A program made the translations under genes and the position numbers. A stretch of DNA of 12,499 nucleotides from an uncultured Eggerthellaceae bacterium. Lineage in GTDB: Bacteria > Actinomycetota > Coriobacteriia > Coriobacteriales > Eggerthellaceae. The stretch is taken from the NCBI GenBank assembly GCA_946618265.1, contig CAMOLA010000060.1:1-12499 (forward strand). The letters run 5' to 3'. Position 1 is the first letter of the stretch. Each line of letters begins with the position of its first letter. The notes beneath the pieces were generated by a model. That model worked only from the letters and a program-made list of their open reading frames with translations, had not been told where the DNA came from and ran no database searches. Positions 251 to 11,913 of the stretch are shown here, in pieces.

Positions 251-428
251 GGGGGAAAGTCCCGAATCGAGGTCAAAAGGAAGCGTTTCGAAAATTGTCC
301 GCACGCTCTGAGGCCGATAACCTTTCATGCTAGAGGGATTCGCGGGCTCTGGCGCGCTTGTGCGCTGTTTGTCCTGCGAAAACGGGGGTGAAACCCCCTT
401 CAACGAGCGAGAGAGAGGAGATCGGGGC

Positions 429-3116
429 ATGAGTGCTATGGATGGATTGACCACCACCACACAAAGCATCGCGAGCGGCGGCACGGGCGGCGATCCGACT
501 GCGGTAGACAGCAAGGACGGCAAGATCGTTCGCATCCGCCCGATGCACATCGACGAGCACTATACCGAAGAAGAGCTCGCCGAGTCCATGTGGGAGCTAG
601 AGGTCGATGGGAAGAAGCTGCGTCCCGAGATGAAGGCGGCGCCGAACTATATGGCGCTGGCCTACAAGCAGCGCGTCTACTCCAAGAACCGCGTAATGAA
701 GCCGCTGAAACGCGTCGACTGGGAGCCGGGTGGCGATCCGGCCAAGATCAACGCGGCCAACCGCGGCAAATCGAAGTTCGTTGAGATTAGCTGGGACGAG
801 GCGCTCGACATCATGGAAAGCGAGCTGCGCCGCGTCATCGACAAGTACGGCCCCTACACGGTGCTCTGCGTTGGCGAGGATGGTCATCGCGAGTCCAAGG
901 ACTTGCATGCGGGCGGCGGCATGCATGCGACCGTCATGGACAAGCTGGGCGGTTACACGCGCGAGACGCGCACCCCCGACTCGGTCGAGGGCTGGTACTG
1001 GGGCGCTAAGCATTTCTGGGGTTCGGGCTTCAACCATGGGGGCGGTCTGATCGCGCCCCCGCAAAACAACTATTCCAACTGGAACGTCGTGAAGGACGTC
1101 ACCGAGAACGCCGACCTGCTGTTGTTCGACGCGGGCGACTGGGAGCTCACGCAGAACTACGGCTCGATGTTCTTCTCGCGCCTGCTGAAGTACTGGGAGC
1201 AGCTCGGAAAAGAGTTCGTGTCGGTCGACCCGTTCTGCAACTACACGGCCGTGTGCCACAAGGACGTCAAGTGGATTCCAATCCTGCCGAACACCGACGC
1301 AGCGTTTAACTTCGGCGTCATGTACACGATGATCGACGAGGGCATCTACGACAAGGATTTCATCGACACGCACTCGATCGGATTCGACAAAGTCGTCGAT
1401 TACATCATGGGTAAAGAAGACGGCGTGCCGAAAGACCCGAAGTGGGCGGCCGAGCGCTGCGGCGTTCCGGCGCATACCATCAAGGCGTTCGCGCGCAATA
1501 TCTGCAAGAAGCGCGCCTCGCACGTCATGTACAGCTCGGGCGCCATCAAGACGCCGTACAGCCACGAACCCGGCCGAACGGCCGCCTACATGCTGGCCAT
1601 GCAGGGCATGGGCAAGCCTGGCGTGCAGCAGCTGCACCTCGAGGCCACGAGCATGGGCAAGGAGCGCATTGCTGCGTCGTCGACCCGTCCGTTCAGCATG
1701 CTCAACCACTGCCGCATGTTCTTCCCGACCGCCCAGTCGCTGCCGCGCACCGAGATCGCCACCGCGCTCACGAAGGGCGAGGTCAAGTGGTGGGGCAGCC
1801 CCTGCATCGTCTACGTTACCACCGAAGAGCAGTTTCAGGAGTTCAACTACCCGGCCGACCCGCAGAAGGCGCTCGCCATGCAGCAGGCCATGGCCGCTCG
1901 CATGGGCGTGGAGCCGCCGACCGAGGCCCCCAAAATCTCCAAGGTGCACATGCTGTGGTCTGAGAAGCCCTGCAATATGAACTGCTGGAACGGCGGTTTC
2001 GAATTCCAGGATGCCATCCGCACCGACGAGGTGGAGTTCTTCGTGACCAATCACCAGTGGATGGAGAACGACTCGCTGTTCGCCGACCTCGTGCTGCCCG
2101 TGACCACGTGCCTGGAAGATGACGATACCATGGGCGCATCGATGACCGTGCAGCTGCGCTATGCCGCCTACACGCCGCATGCGTGCGACCGCGTGGGCGA
2201 GTCGAAATCCGACTGGGAGATCGCACTCGACGTGCTCGATCGGTTCGGCAAACGCGAAGAGCTCGATCGCGGCCTCACCACCGAGGAATGGCTGAAGTTC
2301 GGGTTCGACCAGTCGCGCCTGACCGAGGAAACGACCTGGGAGAACTTGAAGGAGAAGGGCTTCTATTACCCGAAGCTCGAGGAAAACTGGCGCGACGAGC
2401 TGCCCGGCATGCGCGGCTTTTATGACGACCCCGAGAACTATCCGCTCGACACGCCGTCTGGCAAGCTGGAATTCTATTCCGAGGCCCTCGCAACGAACTT
2501 CCCCGATGACAAGGAACGCCAGCCCATCGCCAAATGGATCGTCGGCGGCCCAGCCGAGGAAGGTTGGACGCACGACGAGAGCCTGTGGGGCGAGCGCTGC
2601 AAGACCTATCCGCTGCTCGTGACTGCCAACCCGGCGCGCTTCCGCGTGCACGTGCAGGGCGATGACATCGCCTGGTACCGCGAGATCGAGACGACGAAGG
2701 TCAAGGGGCCGGACGGCTACCTGTACGAGCCGCTGTGGATCAGCCCCGAAGATGCCGATGCGCGCGATATCAAGCAGGGTGACATCGTGAAGTTGTACAA
2801 CGAGCGCGGCATCATCCTGACAGGCGCCTACATCTCCGAGCGCGTCATGCCCGGCTCGGTCGTGGTGGCCAAGGGCTCGCGCGTCGACCCGATTGCCCCG
2901 CACATCGACCGCGGCGGTGCCATCAATCTAATCAGCCCGCAGGCCACCGTTTCGAAGCACTGCAAGGGCTTCGCCGTCACCGGTTATCTGGCCGAAGCTG
3001 AAAAGCTTTCCCAGGAAGAGTACGACAGCTGGAAGCGAGAGTATCCCGAGGCGTTCGAGCGCGACTACGACCCCGGCGCGGGCATCACGCGCGATGCGTG
3101 GGTAGTCAAACAGTAG
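429..3116 (+). CDS. Molybdopterin oxidoreductase catalytic subunit, pyrogallol transhydroxylase / catechol dehydroxylase-like
   Basis: This 895-residue protein is a DMSO-reductase-family molybdenum enzyme. It resembles the large subunit of Pelobacter acidigallici pyrogallol-phloroglucinol transhydroxylase and the catechol dehydroxylases of gut Eggerthellaceae, which remove or move ring hydroxyls. The segment PDSVEGWYWG places Asp184-Ser185 where the transhydroxylase has its catalytic Asp and Mo-ligating Ser. His153 lies about 32 residues earlier, near the position of its active-site His. MQGMGKPG and the C-terminal cofactor-binding domain (about 770-880) also fit. There is no N-terminal cysteine Fe-S motif, as in transhydroxylase, and no Tat signal, so the enzyme should be cytoplasmic. 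The start at 429 follows AGGAG by 8 bases; an in-frame upstream extension to 327 lacks a ribosome site. The family call is strong; the substrate is unknown. Confidence 0.88.
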   Translation: MSAMDGLTTTTQSIASGGTGGDPTAVDSKDGKIVRIRPMHIDEHYTEEELAESMWELEVDGKKLRPEMKAAPNYMALAYKQRVYSKNRVMKPLKRVDWEPGGDPAKINAANRGKSKFVEISWDEALDIMESELRRVIDKYGPYTVLCVGEDGHRESKDLHAGGGMHATVMDKLGGYTRETRTPDSVEGWYWGAKHFWGSGFNHGGGLIAPPQNNYSNWNVVKDVTENADLLLFDAGDWELTQNYGSMFFSRLLKYWEQLGKEFVSVDPFCNYTAVCHKDVKWIPILPNTDAAFNFGVMYTMIDEGIYDKDFIDTHSIGFDKVVDYIMGKEDGVPKDPKWAAERCGVPAHTIKAFARNICKKRASHVMYSSGAIKTPYSHEPGRTAAYMLAMQGMGKPGVQQLHLEATSMGKERIAASSTRPFSMLNHCRMFFPTAQSLPRTEIATALTKGEVKWWGSPCIVYVTTEEQFQEFNYPADPQKALAMQQAMAARMGVEPPTEAPKISKVHMLWSEKPCNMNCWNGGFEFQDAIRTDEVEFFVTNHQWMENDSLFADLVLPVTTCLEDDDTMGASMTVQLRYAAYTPHACDRVGESKSDWEIALDVLDRFGKREELDRGLTTEEWLKFGFDQSRLTEETTWENLKEKGFYYPKLEENWRDELPGMRGFYDDPENYPLDTPSGKLEFYSEALATNFPDDKERQPIAKWIVGGPAEEGWTHDESLWGERCKTYPLLVTANPARFRVHVQGDDIAWYREIETTKVKGPDGYLYEPLWISPEDADARDIKQGDIVKLYNERGIILTGAYISERVMPGSVVVAKGSRVDPIAPHIDRGGAINLISPQATVSKHCKGFAVTGYLAEAEKLSQEEYDSWKREYPEAFERDYDPGAGITRDAWVVKQ

Positions 3117-3144
3117 TCGGGCTTATAACGAGAGAGGACGAGAA

Positions 3145-3948
3145 ATGAAGGGATTCCTGATCGATGTCAGCAGGTGCGTCGGATGTCATGCTTGCCAGAT
3201 TGGCTGCAAGGACGAGCACTGTGGGAACTGCTGGATGCCCTATGCGCAAGAGCAGCCCAACTCCGGTCAGTTCTGGCTGAAGGTGAACCAGAAGGAGCGC
3301 GGCCAGCGCCCGCAGGTCAAGGTGAGCTATATTCCCACGCCGTGCATGCACTGCGAGAACGCGCCATGCGAGAAGGCGGCCAAGGACGGCGCGGTCTACC
3401 ATCGCGAGGACGGGCTGGTCATCATCGACCCGGTGAAAGCCAAGGGCCAAAAGCAAATCGTGGATGCGTGCCCCTATCACAAGATTTTCTGGAACGAGGA
3501 GCTCGAGATTCCGCAGAAGTGCACCGGTTGCGCGCATCTGCTCGACGACGAGGATTCGCCGATCCGCGTGCCGCGCTGCATGGACAACTGTCCAGTCGGC
3601 GTCATCCAGTTTGGCGAGCTCGACGAGCTTGACCTCGAAGGAGCCGAGGTGCTGCACCCCGAATATGGCACCAGCCCGCACGTGTACTACAAGGGCCTGC
3701 CGAAGAAGTTCATCGCCGGCACCGTGTACACGCCCGAAGACGACGAGATCGTCGAAGGTGCCACGGTCGTGGCCGAGGCAGACGGTAGTCGTTTCGAGGC
3801 GACGACGAACAGTTGGGGAGATTTCTGGATTGACGATCTGCCGGACGCCGAGTTTACGGTGACCATCGCCAAGGACGGCAAGGAGAAGGTGCTTTCCGTT
3901 AGCACGATGGATGCGGACAGGGGCCTCGGCGACATCGCGTTCGCGTAA
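3145..3948 (+). CDS. Iron-sulfur electron-transfer subunit with C-terminal beta-sandwich domain, transhydroxylase small-subunit-like
   Basis: This 267-residue protein is the partner of the molybdenum subunit, starting 28 bases after its stop behind an AGAGG ribosome site. Cysteines at 11, 14, 17 and 21, then 67, 70, 75 and 109, then 126, 129, 145 and 149 make twelve ligands, enough for three [4Fe-4S] clusters, as in the transhydroxylase small subunit. Two extra cysteines sit at 26 and 29. Residues from about 190 to the end (GTVYTPEDDEIVEGATV and onward) form a carboxypeptidase-regulatory or transthyretin-like beta-sandwich, a diagnostic feature of the transhydroxylase small subunit that ordinary DMSO-reductase B subunits lack. 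No signal peptide or membrane anchor is present, so electrons probably come from a soluble donor. Confidence 0.9.
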   Translation: MKGFLIDVSRCVGCHACQIGCKDEHCGNCWMPYAQEQPNSGQFWLKVNQKERGQRPQVKVSYIPTPCMHCENAPCEKAAKDGAVYHREDGLVIIDPVKAKGQKQIVDACPYHKIFWNEELEIPQKCTGCAHLLDDEDSPIRVPRCMDNCPVGVIQFGELDELDLEGAEVLHPEYGTSPHVYYKGLPKKFIAGTVYTPEDDEIVEGATVVAEADGSRFEATTNSWGDFWIDDLPDAEFTVTIAKDGKEKVLSVSTMDADRGLGDIAFA

Positions 3949-3953
3949 GGCTG

Positions 3954-4238
3954 ATGGCTTCCGGGTCTGACAGGCAGCTGGAAGAGTGTCGGGGGGCTGA
4001 TTTCCCCCGGCGCTTTCCGACCGTGCACATCTGCTCGGTCGATTACGCGTGCCAAATACTCGTTGGCGAGGATGGACGCGAATATCGCGAGCTGCCCGAC
4101 AGCTCTTGGATCGAGATCGGTCCCGTGCGCGATGGCAGCGTGCGCTACTGGGGCAGCGGCTCGCATGCGGGCCACATCAATTTGCTGCCGCTCGCCTATT
4201 ACTCCGATGGAACATGGATTGACGTGCTGGGCGAATAG
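3954..4238 (+). CDS. Uncharacterised 94-residue protein, third gene of the molybdoenzyme operon
   Basis: The ATG lies 5 bases after the stop of the iron-sulfur subunit. AAGG overlapping that stop codon (3947-3950) can serve as ribosome site, implying coupled translation. A strong terminator follows 25 bases after the stop, so the gene belongs to the operon. The product is small, soluble and mildly acidic, with a central beta-rich pattern (YACQILVGEDGREYREL, then SSWIEIGPVRDGSVRYWG). It has no cysteine cluster motif, no membrane segment and no family I recognise. Position suggests an accessory role such as enzyme maturation, stability or substrate binding, but this is inference only. Confidence 0.65.
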   Translation: MASGSDRQLEECRGADFPRRFPTVHICSVDYACQILVGEDGREYRELPDSSWIEIGPVRDGSVRYWGSGSHAGHINLLPLAYYSDGTWIDVLGE

Positions 4239-4263: not shown

Positions 4264-4307
4264 AAAACATGGGACGGCAATCAAAGACCCGTCCCATGTT
4301 TTGTTTT
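4264..4307 (+). terminator. Rho-independent terminator closing the molybdoenzyme operon
   Basis: AAAACATGGGACGG (4264-4277) pairs perfectly with CCGTCCCATGTTTT (4289-4302) across an 11-base loop, and the T-rich run TTTTGTTTT ends at 4307. It starts 25 bases after the stop of the 94-residue gene. The end of its T-run is also the left copy of the 7-bp direct repeat flanking the inserted element at 4308-4468. Confidence 0.88.
4301..4307. repeat. Direct repeat TTGTTTT, left copy (candidate target-site duplication)
   Basis: TTGTTTT at 4301-4307 recurs exactly at 4469-4475, immediately outside the 51-bp terminal inverted repeats. A short direct repeat bracketing an inverted-repeat element is the usual scar of transposition. 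The motif is low in complexity, so a chance match cannot be excluded. Confidence 0.55.
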
Positions 4308-4468
4308 GCTCTATGTTAAACCGACGTTGACACGGAACCGCCCCTGGCAGGTGGGGCGTTCGCTTGGCTTCGGCTAGCCTAGATGAATGGTTGAAGTTTG
4401 TGCCTGCAGGATCGTTCACGCCCCACCTGCCAGGGGCGGTTCCGTGTCAACGTCGGTTTAACATAGAG
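4308..4468. mobile_element. MITE-like element with perfect 51-bp terminal inverted repeats
   Basis: The arms 4309-4359 and 4418-4468 are exact reverse complements over all 51 positions, separated by a 58-base non-coding core. Each arm also contains a small internal hairpin (CGCCCC, 8 bases, GGGGCG). TTGTTTT lies directly outside both ends. No transposase is encoded, so the element would be non-autonomous and mobilised in trans. The core carries CTTGGCTTCGGCTA (4363-4376), identical to bases 1-14 of the window, which implies a repeat family. As RNA it would form a very stable 51-bp hairpin, so a processed or regulatory RNA is an alternative reading. Confidence 0.7.
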
Positions 4469-4475
4469 TTGTTTT
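4469..4475. repeat. Direct repeat TTGTTTT, right copy (candidate target-site duplication)
   Basis: This is the second copy of TTGTTTT. Joining the flanks without the element gives CATGTTTTGTTTTACAATTG, an intact terminator T-run running straight into the lipoprotein promoter region. Confidence 0.55.
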
Positions 4476-6021: not shown

Positions 6022-6092
6022 CCGATGCGCGCGGGGGCGCACCGACCGAAAGGGAGACTCCCTTTCGGTCAGCGCGCCCCCGCGCGCATCGG
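6022..6092. repeat. 71-bp near-perfect palindrome with GGGA-GAC-TCCC core (REP-like)
   Basis: The dyad is centred on 6057. Arms 6022-6056 and 6058-6092 pair at all but two positions (6041/6073 and 6043/6071). The inner part GACCGAAAGGGAG / CTCCCTTTCGGTC belongs to the same family as the palindromes flanking nrdG. The outer part, rich in CG alternation (6024-6040 with 6074-6090), is unique to this copy. It lies between two minus-strand genes, just beyond the terminator of the upstream one. Confidence 0.85.
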
Positions 6093-7501: not shown

Positions 7502-7532
7502 TATCCATTTGGGGACTGTCCCCAAATGGATA
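7502..7532. repeat. 31-bp perfect palindrome, GGGGA-CTG-TCCCC core (REP-like)
   Basis: Arms 7502-7516 and 7518-7532 are perfectly complementary around T7517. The core GGGGACTGTCCCC is extended by ATTT/AAAT and then TATCC/GGATA. It starts three bases after the LysR stop and could stop transcription or protect the 3' end, though no T-run follows. Confidence 0.85.
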
Positions 7533-8988: not shown

Positions 8989-9019
8989 TATACATTTGGG
9001 GACTGTCCCCAAATGTATA
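8989..9019. repeat. 31-bp perfect palindrome, GGGGA-CTG-TCCCC core (REP-like)
   Basis: Arms 8989-9003 and 9005-9019 are perfectly complementary around T9004. The core and ATTT/AAAT flanks equal those of 7502-7532, while the outermost bases differ (TATAC/GTATA instead of TATCC/GGATA). It ends about a dozen bases before the ribosome site of the TPR gene. Confidence 0.85.
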
Positions 9020-10868: not shown

Positions 10869-10933
10869 GACTGACCGAAGGGGAGCCTCCCTAACGGTCA
10901 GTGACCGAAAGGGAGTCTCCCCTTCGGTCAGTC
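10869..10933. repeat. 65-bp REP-doublet palindrome upstream of nrdG
   Basis: The dyad is centred on 10901. The outer 17 bases GACTGACCGAAGGGGAG (10869-10885) and CTCCCCTTCGGTCAGTC (10917-10933) pair perfectly; the inside pairs with few mismatches. It can also be read as two adjacent units, each close to TGACCGAA-GGGAGNCTCCC-TTCGGTCA; the left unit has AA where TT is expected. It ends 30 bases before the nrdG start. Confidence 0.85.
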
Positions 10934-10963
10934 GTAGATGCGGACGGCGGAAGGGAAAGAACG

Positions 10964-11682: not shown

Positions 11683-11742
11683 ACCAGGGTGTGCGCGAGG
11701 TGCCGGGCGCTGTGCGCGAGAACGCATGCGGTGCACCGAACG

Positions 11743-11799
11743 GACCGAAGGGGAGTCTCCCCAATGGTCACAGACCATTGGGGAGACTCCCCTTCGGTC
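11743..11799. repeat. 57-bp REP-doublet palindrome between nrdG and nrdD
   Basis: Arms 11743-11769 and 11773-11799 are perfect 27-bp complements around the 3-base loop ACA. Each arm contains a smaller palindrome GGGGAGTCTCCCC (or GGGGAGACTCCCC) with GACCGAA outside and AATGGTC inside. This is two REP units facing each other, the layout of a REPIN. Confidence 0.88.
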
Positions 11800-11913
11800 A
11801 GTGTGCCAGGTCAGTGCTCGGCAATGCCGTGGGCGCCTGTTTGCCCAGATTTGTGTCTCGGGAATACAACCGTCGGCGTGACCTTGCATTTTAGGCGCGA
11901 CGGTCGGTTAATG

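What the first reader, a model, noticed from the sequence alone, without database searches (positions are those of the whole stretch)
4301..4475. MITE-like insertion with perfect 51-bp inverted repeats and a 7-bp target duplication
Both arms (4309-4359, 4418-4468) are exact complements over 51 bp around a 58-base non-coding core, and TTGTTTT lies directly outside each end. Perfect identity of arms suggests recent insertion or gene conversion. Removing the element restores a terminator T-run joined to the TACAAT of the lipoprotein gene. The element therefore sits exactly between a terminator and a promoter and may have changed expression of the lipoprotein.
Basis: partly seen in the sequence, partly recalled or inferred. 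Interest (0 to 1): 0.72.

Follow-up and report, generated by a model that had tools for sequence, protein, structure and literature searches.

The report
Long-hairpin repeat family in Coriobacteriia
A striking perfect hairpin between two genes of a gut bacterium is one copy of a scattered repeat family, apparently not described before, whose folded tip is conserved while its long arms change freely and together, so it looks like a new variant of the known palindromic repeats of bacterial genomes.

Summary
The 51-bp perfect inverted repeat is real. It is not a lone MITE but one copy of a dispersed hairpin family in Coriobacteriia-like genomes. Conserved is the folded tip: an asymmetric internal loop (GCTTGGCTTCG / TGCAGAATCGC in most near relatives) capped by a short covarying helix. 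Arms differ between copies yet pair within each: of 174 places picked by the tip alone, 156 have pairing arms, against 2 of 172 when arms of different copies are combined. In 608 kb of one relative there are 60 copies, and its 18 close pairs all face each other. In orthologous copies both arms changed together; one copy lies in frame inside murF. No Rfam family fits; six paper searches listed no description. TTGTTTT flanks are real but one base off on the left. Flanking 9-mers agreeing in 8 or more positions exceed chance in the window's subfamily (3 of 28, 0.19 expected; the window itself is not among them), not in others (1 of 67, 0.83 expected). Best reading: a non-autonomous, REP-like mobile hairpin read by its tip, arms kept perfect by template switching or selection. 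Its mobilising enzyme is unknown.

The parts
4309..4359 (+). left (5') arm of the long stem, 51 nt
   Evidence: exact reverse complement of 4418-4468
4418..4468 (+). right (3') arm of the long stem, 51 nt
4351..4427 (+). family-defining part: model R2 matches here with 73.8 bits, E 2.6e-20 (this sequence is one of the 36 used to build R2); no other R2 match in the window up to E 10
   Evidence: independent of the model, BLAST with the element found its core in a related genome
4362..4374 (+). 5' side of the conserved tip: GC, internal loop TTGG, CT, T, CGGC
   Evidence: invariant or nearly invariant columns of A1 and A3
4402..4415 (+). 3' side of the conserved tip: GCC, bulged T, G, C, AG, internal loop GATC (AATC in most copies), GT
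   Evidence: pair counts
4301..4307 (.). left direct repeat TTGTTTT, in the T-run of the terminator-like hairpin; separated from the arm by G4308
4469..4475 (.). right direct repeat TTGTTTT, flush with the right arm
4264..4302 (+). terminator-like hairpin upstream of the element
   Evidence: fold
3954..4238 (+). upstream 94-aa ORF; homologues follow the ferredoxin-like gene in L001-L005
4520..4993 (+). downstream lipoprotein-like ORF, 157 aa from the ATG (lipobox reading LSAC recalled, not from a tool)
   Evidence: no Pfam match

Best explanation
The feature is one copy of a dispersed, non-autonomous long-hairpin element of Coriobacteriia. The family is defined by a folded tip: a conserved asymmetric internal loop and a bulged base below a short covarying helix. 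SHOWN: many copies at unrelated loci, conserved tip, self-complementary but copy-specific arms, mutually facing pairs in one genome, presence/absence differences at matching gene neighbourhoods, joint change of both arms in orthologous copies. INFERRED: the element spreads as a single-stranded or cruciform DNA hairpin. A trans-acting enzyme, not identified, would recognise the tip and, in several subfamilies, short unpaired end tags (TGTCC, CGTCCC or TCCC before the stem; TACGCT or TGCGTTT after it). INFERRED: the arms stay perfect because template switching in replication copies changes from one arm to the other, with or without selection for the stem. The tip stays asymmetric because it is what is recognised. 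The window copy would be an insertion at the T-run of the terminator of the upstream gene.
For: Copies: 9 BLAST matches in G001, one of them a 25-nt remnant and two probably one copy cut by contig ends; 12 of 15 genus genomes and 20 of 138 family genomes with model R1 (at most 26 candidates scored per genome, so copy numbers are lower bounds); 60 in 608,091 bp of G007. Arms: 156 of 174 places chosen by the tip alone have arm score 12 or more, against 2 of 172 re-paired arms. Structure: 251 two-sided cells against 84 in shuffles, 88.6% paired against 64.5% (A1, 38 copies); class-wide A3 143 against 51. Tip helix variants GGC/GCC, GCC/GGC, GCT/AGC, GGT/ACC, GAC/GTC. Pairs: 18 of 42 units in 608 kb of G007 are pairs, all 18 in + - order. 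Presence/absence: murF of G013 and G014 carries the element in frame, murF of G007 does not. Flanking 9-mers agreeing in 8 or more: 3 of 28 in the G001/G008/window set, 0.19 expected. Joint arm change: murF copy 77 of 110 identical between G013 and G014, 200-nt flanks 175 of 191 and 163 of 185 aligned positions. Template switching as maker and keeper of perfect stems: PMC8794818 (abstract and opening seen).
Against: No transposase, integrase or other mobilising gene was found with the element: 10 of the 28 Y1_Tnp matches were fetched as loci and gave no convincing hairpin (best 11.5 bits, E 0.83); G008, G017 and G135 carry many hairpins without a Y1 match (genomes may be incomplete). Tagged subfamilies show no flanking-repeat excess (1 of 67, 0.83 expected), G007 has 0 of 31 exact repeats of 6 bp or more, and the window does not enter the 9-mer list. 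Not all pairs face each other: on another G007 contig (L053) two copies stand in the same orientation. Direction of the presence/absence differences (gain or loss) was not tested, and the non-murF sites were too diverged to place a junction. The faster change of the element is clear for one orthologous pair only. Template switching is inferred from pattern, not observed.
Confidence: 0.6

Rival explanations
1. A structured RNA (or 3' UTR element) carried in many transcripts: the tip binds a protein and the long stem blocks nucleases or is an RNase III substrate; dispersal is secondary.
For: Strong covariation including the tip helix; conserved internal loop; a few copies start shortly after a stop codon (L286, L287, by eye). 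In G007 the strand opposite to the one I read folds better (28 of 31 copies) and turns 64 of 74 transition-type mismatches into G.U, as an RNA of that strand would.
Against: Outside G007 no polarity: G.U 31 and A.C 41 on the tip-reading strand (81 copies), and that strand folds better in 12 of 25. The G007 bias is mostly one inherited site (38 of 64). Copies stand in both orientations and, by crude ORF calls, in all gene arrangements. No Rfam match.
Confidence: 0.22
2. A classical MITE: deletion derivative of a transposon with long terminal inverted repeats and a 7-9-bp target duplication.
For: Perfect terminal repeats, TTGTTTT flanks, flanking repeats in L153, L011 and L015 and L013; outer arm ends of several G001/G008 copies look alike by eye (about CARTGTCRTTC).
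Against: Arms are not shared across the family and fit only their own partner; the conserved part is internal; no parent transposon seen; no duplication excess in the other subfamilies.
Confidence: 0.12
3. An old, no longer mobile REP-like family now inherited vertically, with arms kept perfect by template switching alone.
For: Same-locus copies in several genomes (G013/G014, G001/G008; L200, L201 and L206 with near-identical surroundings); CGTC-tagged REPs also lack a dedicated transposase (PMC3733652, passages).
Against: 60 copies in 608 kb of G007 with alike tags and tips suggest amplification in that lineage; G020 and G022 of the same family show none.
Confidence: 0.2

Closest known systems
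REP / REPIN / BIME repeats (GTAG- and CGTC-tagged palindromes; PMC3733652)
   Same: Many dispersed, mostly intergenic palindromes; inverted pairs; unpaired tag at one end in several subfamilies (CGTCCC in G016, TGTCC in G012/G017); copies inside genes known; no dedicated transposase found, as reported for CGTC REPs.
   Different: Stems of about 20-51 bp instead of 5-13; conserved asymmetric internal loop at the tip; arm sequence free but paired; the window copy has no tag.
Rickettsia palindromic elements (RPE; two of them are named as CGTC repeats in PMC3733652; their in-frame coding nature is recalled)
   Same: Hairpin element sitting in frame inside a protein gene (murF of G013/G014).
   Different: No sequence comparison was made; one intragenic case was examined here.
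Bacterial MITEs such as ERIC, Correia, RUP (recalled)
   Same: Short, non-autonomous, inverted repeat, some with flanking duplications.
   Different: Those families have conserved terminal repeats (recalled); here the arms vary and the inside is conserved.
Template-switch maintained hairpins (PMC8794818)
   Same: Perfect stems with multi-base compensatory changes.
   Different: That paper treats RNA genes; here a dispersed repeat with an exempt, conserved tip.

Membership tests
REP (GTAG/CGTC-tagged) | many dispersed palindromic copies per genome | tested here: met
   60 copies in 608 kb of G007; 24 matches in G001, 31 in G016
REP (GTAG/CGTC-tagged) | stem 5-13 bp, unit 20-40 bp (values from PMC3733652) | tested here: not met
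   arms 51 bp in the window, about 20-45 nt in most others
REP (GTAG/CGTC-tagged) | unpaired GTAG or CGTC (also TGTC, CCTC) tag at one end | tested here: inconclusive
   before the stem: TGTCC in 10 of 12 G012/G017/G002 rows, CGTCCC in 7 of 8 G016 rows, TCCC in 12 of 15 G207/G413 rows; absent in the window and not seen as a rule in G001/G008
REP (GTAG/CGTC-tagged) | inverted dimers | tested here: met
   18 of 18 pairs in 608 kb of G007 in + - order; one same-orientation pair on another contig (L053); the window copy is single
REP (GTAG/CGTC-tagged) | RAYT gene flanked by the repeats (GTAG class) | tested here: not met
   10 of 28 Y1_Tnp matches fetched, no hairpin better than E 0.83; Y1_Tnp in 15 of 20 carriers and 56 of 118 others of the family
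MITE | family-wide conserved terminal inverted repeats | tested here: not met
   arm 22-mer 0 matches; arms fit only their own partner
MITE | target site duplication of fixed length | tested here: inconclusive
   3 of 28 (0.19 expected) in the window's subfamily, 1 of 67 (0.83 expected) in the others
MITE | a full transposon sharing the ends | not tested
   no whole-genome search for a gene between two hairpins was made; the window's genome is not held
structured non-coding RNA | covarying secondary structure | tested here: met
structured non-coding RNA | strand polarity (G.U favoured over A.C on the RNA strand) | tested here: inconclusive
   31 against 41 outside G007; 10 against 64 in G007, 38 of them at one site
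structured non-coding RNA | match to a curated family | tested here: not met
   Rfam 15: none at gathering score in the window; over the element in relatives only hits far below cut-off, nearly all microRNA models
intrinsic terminator | hairpin followed by a T-run | tested here: not met
   TGCGTTT follows in 10 of 15 G207/G413 rows, TACGCT or other non-T-runs in G012/G017; in the window the right arm is followed by TTGTTTT, the direct repeat

The most novel reading that the evidence does not exclude
A class-wide mobile element addressed by fold rather than by sequence. Its identity lies in a conserved asymmetric tip, while its long arms are a free, self-correcting stretch that template switching keeps perfect. 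The element can therefore diversify its DNA almost without limit, perhaps avoiding recombination between copies, and still be recognised and moved. It may depend on a hairpin-recognising enzyme not yet linked to any repeat.
Probability: 0.3. Interest if true: 0.82.

Novelty: new variant of a known kind. Interest (0 to 1): 0.62.

Why it matters
The family offers many natural copies, within single genomes and at some orthologous loci, of a hairpin whose two arms evolve together. That makes the old question of how perfect stems are kept (selection on each compensatory change, or template switching in replication) directly testable in bacteria. It also points to an unknown factor that reads the tip. 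And it shows that searches by arm sequence or for short stems would miss such repeats: a 22-mer of the window's arm has no exact match in one genome each of 84,980 species, although relatives with the same tip are numerous.

Tried and rejected
Lone MITE with conserved terminal repeats: rejected, because arms are not shared while the core is. Plasmid or phage origin: no match to the element in plasmids or phages. Two tip patterns in viral contigs gave 37 and 25 stretches; with model R2 the best reached 31.3 bits (14 matches in the 62 loci at E 0.1 or less), none of three that were folded showed a long perfect stem around the tip, and the two that pass a stricter tip pattern have no pairing arms, so they are read as chance. 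Known RNA family: none. RAYT/REP pair: Y1_Tnp matches in 12 of 15 genus genomes, but of 10 loci fetched 5 carry other palindromes and none a convincing hairpin of this family. Conserved regulator of the lipoprotein gene: rejected, since the G008 homologue lacks it and L001-L005 have no lipoprotein match near the 94-aa ORF. Strand polarity as proof of RNA: tried twice, not decisive. Empty sites other than murF: too diverged to place. The gene-context test in G007 used crude ORF calls; 14 of 42 units fell 'inside' ORFs, many probably spurious, so no bias is claimed. A looser scan for flanking repeats found exact repeats of 7 or more in 10 of 29 (2.2 expected) and of 8 or more in 2 of 29 (0.5 expected), but several lie away from the ends. 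Alignment A2 had one row on the wrong strand (L083) and was replaced by A3.

Selection and dropped rows: the copies had passed a filter for pairing next to the tip (at least 9 of 12), and the 38 rows of A1 were picked by hand mostly from these; this raises the share of paired cells, which is why (no condition on arms) was made. Copies without arms exist: L022 has one pair and 6 of 174 places score under 9. Two chance regex hits (window 9903, L064 633) and two duplicate L053 rows were left out; copies with arms under 20 columns or too little flank were left out, and copies with too little flank; six weak R1 matches in G007 (26-31 bits) were left out of the 60. L016/L017 are probably one copy cut by contig ends and both stand.

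Full report
OBSERVATION. The two arms (4309-4359, 4418-4468) are exactly complementary over 51 bp around a 58-nt core. Nothing near this size appears in 20 shuffles of the window (longest 12-20 bp), and the fold has z = -16.8. TTGTTTT flanks both sides; on the left a G stands between repeat and arm. The element sits between a terminator-like hairpin and a lipoprotein-like ORF. The window's own genome is not held. Relatives of its ferredoxin-like protein place it among Eggerthellaceae and other Coriobacteriia.

IT IS A FAMILY, AND THE CORE IS WHAT IS SHARED. A 22-mer of the arm has no exact match in genome contigs or viral contigs. The whole element used as a BLAST query against six related genomes found nine matches, all in G001 (the genome of L001, a goat-ileum MAG). 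All run through the core and at most the innermost 17 arm bases (query 43-133). One is a 25-nt remnant and two are probably one copy cut by contig ends. Among the 15 genomes of that genus nine had matches; two of these (G017, G018) matched by arm pieces only, so seven share the core by BLAST. A covariance model (R1, from 38 copies) found copies in 12 of the 15 genus genomes and 20 of 138 family genomes, and in 38 of 396 genomes drawn from the class. Copy numbers there are lower bounds because only 26 or 9 candidates per genome were scored with strict filters. A shorter class-wide model (R2, 36 copies) gave 24 matches in G001, 31 in G016, 16 in G135, 15 in G394, and 0 in G020, G022, G140 and G141, four genomes that R1 had left without a match (14 of 18 chosen genomes positive). 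It matched 10 of 396 genomes drawn from the phylum. Nine of the ten carry handles first given in the family or class searches; the tenth (G625) has nearly the same tip. The family thus looks confined to Coriobacteriia as far as this sampling goes. Not every match was looked at: that of G090, for example, was not.

ANATOMY. Near relatives have a long stem, one or two pairs (GC/GC), an internal loop of four by four (TTGG, TTGT, TGGT or TAGT opposite AATC; GATC in the window), and two pairs (C-G, then T-A or C-G). Then follow a T.C mismatch, a C-G pair, a bulged T, and a helix that covaries (GGC/GCC, GCC/GGC, GCT/AGC, GGT/ACC, GAC/GTC, GCGC/GCGC), capped by a loop of variable length. G012-type copies have a shifted version (CGGCGTCCTCG / TGCGGAAGCGG), and two G002 copies (L173, L177) depart further. 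In alignment A1 88.6% of cells pair against 64.5% in shuffles, with 251 two-sided cells against 84. In A3 it is 85.3% against 63.1% and 143 against 51. There the numbers of pairs with a two-sided change (13 against 12.0) and of further pair types (43 against 38.8; 35 of 500 shuffles reach it) do not clearly exceed the shuffles. The alignments were made by MAFFT without the structure. A1's structure was derived from it and A3's was drawn by me, and A1's rows had passed a pairing filter, all of which favours the structure. The freest test is: of 174 places in the held bacterial loci chosen by the tip alone, 156 have arm score 12 or more, 12 have 9-11 and 6 less; left and right arms taken from different copies reach 12 in 2 of 172. 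Those loci had been fetched because of matches, apart from the contig stretches of G007 and G008.

ENDS AND PAIRS. Before the stem stand TCCC(A/G)CC in most G007 copies, TGTCC in 10 of 12 G012/G017/G002 rows, CGTCCC in 7 of 8 G016 rows and TCCC in 12 of 15 G207/G413 rows; after it TGCGTTT in 10 of 15 G207/G413 rows and often TACGCT or TTCGTT elsewhere. In 608,091 bp of G007 there are 60 copies (49 bits or more) in 42 units. Eighteen units are pairs and all 18 are + -, among tandem as well as convergent genes by crude ORF calls. On another G007 contig (L053) two copies stand in the same orientation. Facing dimers are also described for REPs (PMC3733652: abstract, found passages and section 14 read).

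PRESENCE AND ABSENCE. murF of G013 and G014 carries the element in frame (stop-to-stop frames of 513 and 515 aa with three Mur ligase families). The G007 orthologue (485 aa) lacks it and is about 37 residues shorter between SFT(L/M) and L(E/A)LRG. At three more places one genome has a copy and another none between matching neighbours (L194 of G009 against G007, L012 of G001 against G008, L068 of G008 against G007), but the sequence between is too diverged to place a junction. Gain and loss were not told apart. In the window's subfamily flanking 9-mers agree in at least 8 positions in 3 of 28 copies (L153, L011, L015) against 0.19 expected from re-paired flanks; in the tagged subfamilies 1 of 67 against 0.83. 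The window's own repeat does not enter that list; as an exact 7-mer it does (2 of 22, window and L013, null rate 0.36%; G007 0 of 31 of 6 bp or more). A duplication is thus likely for some copies and not seen in others.

ARMS EVOLVE TOGETHER. Three orthologous pairs were compared. Between G013 and G014 the murF copy is 77 of 110 identical while 200-nt flanks are 175 of 191 and 163 of 185 aligned positions (18 and 30 gap columns). Both arms changed over the same stretch and each still pairs, and the tip helix turned from GGC/GCC to GCC/GGC. Between G008 (L141) and G001 (L015) the copy is 80 of 106 identical, BLAST flanks are 84-87%, both arms changed and both differ by one base in length; here the 200-nt flanks aligned less well on one side (161 of 198; 86 of 130 with 140 gap columns). 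Between G008 (L138) and G001 (L016/L017) the arms also differ, and G008 lacks about 30 nt of the outer left arm, so decay occurs too. Two-sided multi-base changes in a short time are what replication template switching predicts (PMC8794818, abstract and opening seen); selection for pairing could also act. The asymmetric tip is not homogenised, which argues that it is under selection.

DNA OR RNA? If the stem were kept as RNA, G.U should exceed A.C on one strand. Outside G007 the counts are 31 and 41 (81 copies, 2072 arm columns). In G007 they are 10 and 64, of which 38 are one site (51 copies). Folding energies agree: the tip-reading strand is lower in 12 of 25 copies outside G007 and in 3 of 31 of G007 (counted). 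G007 thus leans to the other strand and the rest to neither. A DNA-level element is preferred because copies lie in both orientations, in various gene arrangements and once inside a coding sequence. The point is open.

MOBILISER. Y1 (IS200-type) transposase matches are in 12 of 15 genus genomes and 71 of 138 family genomes. Carriers of the hairpin have them in 15 of 20 cases, the others in 56 of 118, a weak association. Ten of the 28 genus matches were fetched; five of these loci carry other palindromes and none a hairpin of this family better than E 0.83. The mobiliser is unknown.

NOVELTY. No Rfam family fits. Paper searches on Eggerthella/REP, Collinsella/REP, Coriobacteria/RNA motif, Rickettsia elements, Coriobacteriia/repeats and Eggerthellaceae/stem-loop listed 6-20 papers each out of 47 to several thousand; none of the titles or abstract starts shown describes this family. 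In PMC3733652 the words Eggerthella, Slackia, Coriobacter and Cryptobacterium do not occur, in PMC12306157 not Eggerthella, Coriobacter, Adlercreutzia or Gordonibacter. Subscription papers and preprints were not searched. The family works like a REP but fails REP's stem-length definition and its tags are only partly REP-like. I file it as a new variant of dispersed palindromic repeats, not as a REP or MITE.

Confidence in the best explanation was lowered slightly (0.62 to 0.60) and the RNA rival raised (0.20 to 0.22). The reasons are the G007 fold and mismatch lean towards one strand, the same-orientation pair in L053, and the window's absence from the 9-mer list.

Noticed in passing
window 6040-6078, 10869-10937, 11739-11807: Five copies of a 39-nt palindromic repeat (about GACCGAAAGGGGAGTCTCCCC...), four of them in two close couples; a similar palindrome lies near a Y1 transposase gene in G007 (L094 481-537), so these may be ordinary REP-type repeats of this lineage.
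   Followed up: partly
window 7502-7532 and 8989-9019: Two 31-nt palindromes TAT(C/A)CATTTGGGGACTGTCCCCAAATG(G/T)ATA, 94% alike.
   Followed up: no
L153 392-506; L119 2781, L126 11737, L114 3657, L124 3596, L101 17272: A second, weakly matching hairpin group (26-31 bits with R1) with a related tip (L153...GTAGCTGCGCAAGCGG), alike at several G007 places.
   Followed up: partly
L182 295-1833, L178 297-1841: murF carrying the hairpin element in frame (about residues 281-320 of the L182 frame), at the end of the middle Mur ligase domain.
   Followed up: partly
L200 1501-1883: In this genome one hairpin lies beside the small SRP RNA gene (RF00169 at 1622-1717), with another hairpin-like stretch at 1793-1883.
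   Followed up: no
window 327-3948: Molybdopterin oxidoreductase plus ferredoxin-like subunit with a carboxypeptidase-regulatory domain, resembling pyrogallol hydroxytransferase-type enzymes, followed by a 94-aa ORF with homologues in L001-L005.
   Followed up: no
L197 / L073 (G129), around the copy: Self-matches of 77-211 bp in the flanks of this copy, that is, direct duplications.
   Followed up: no
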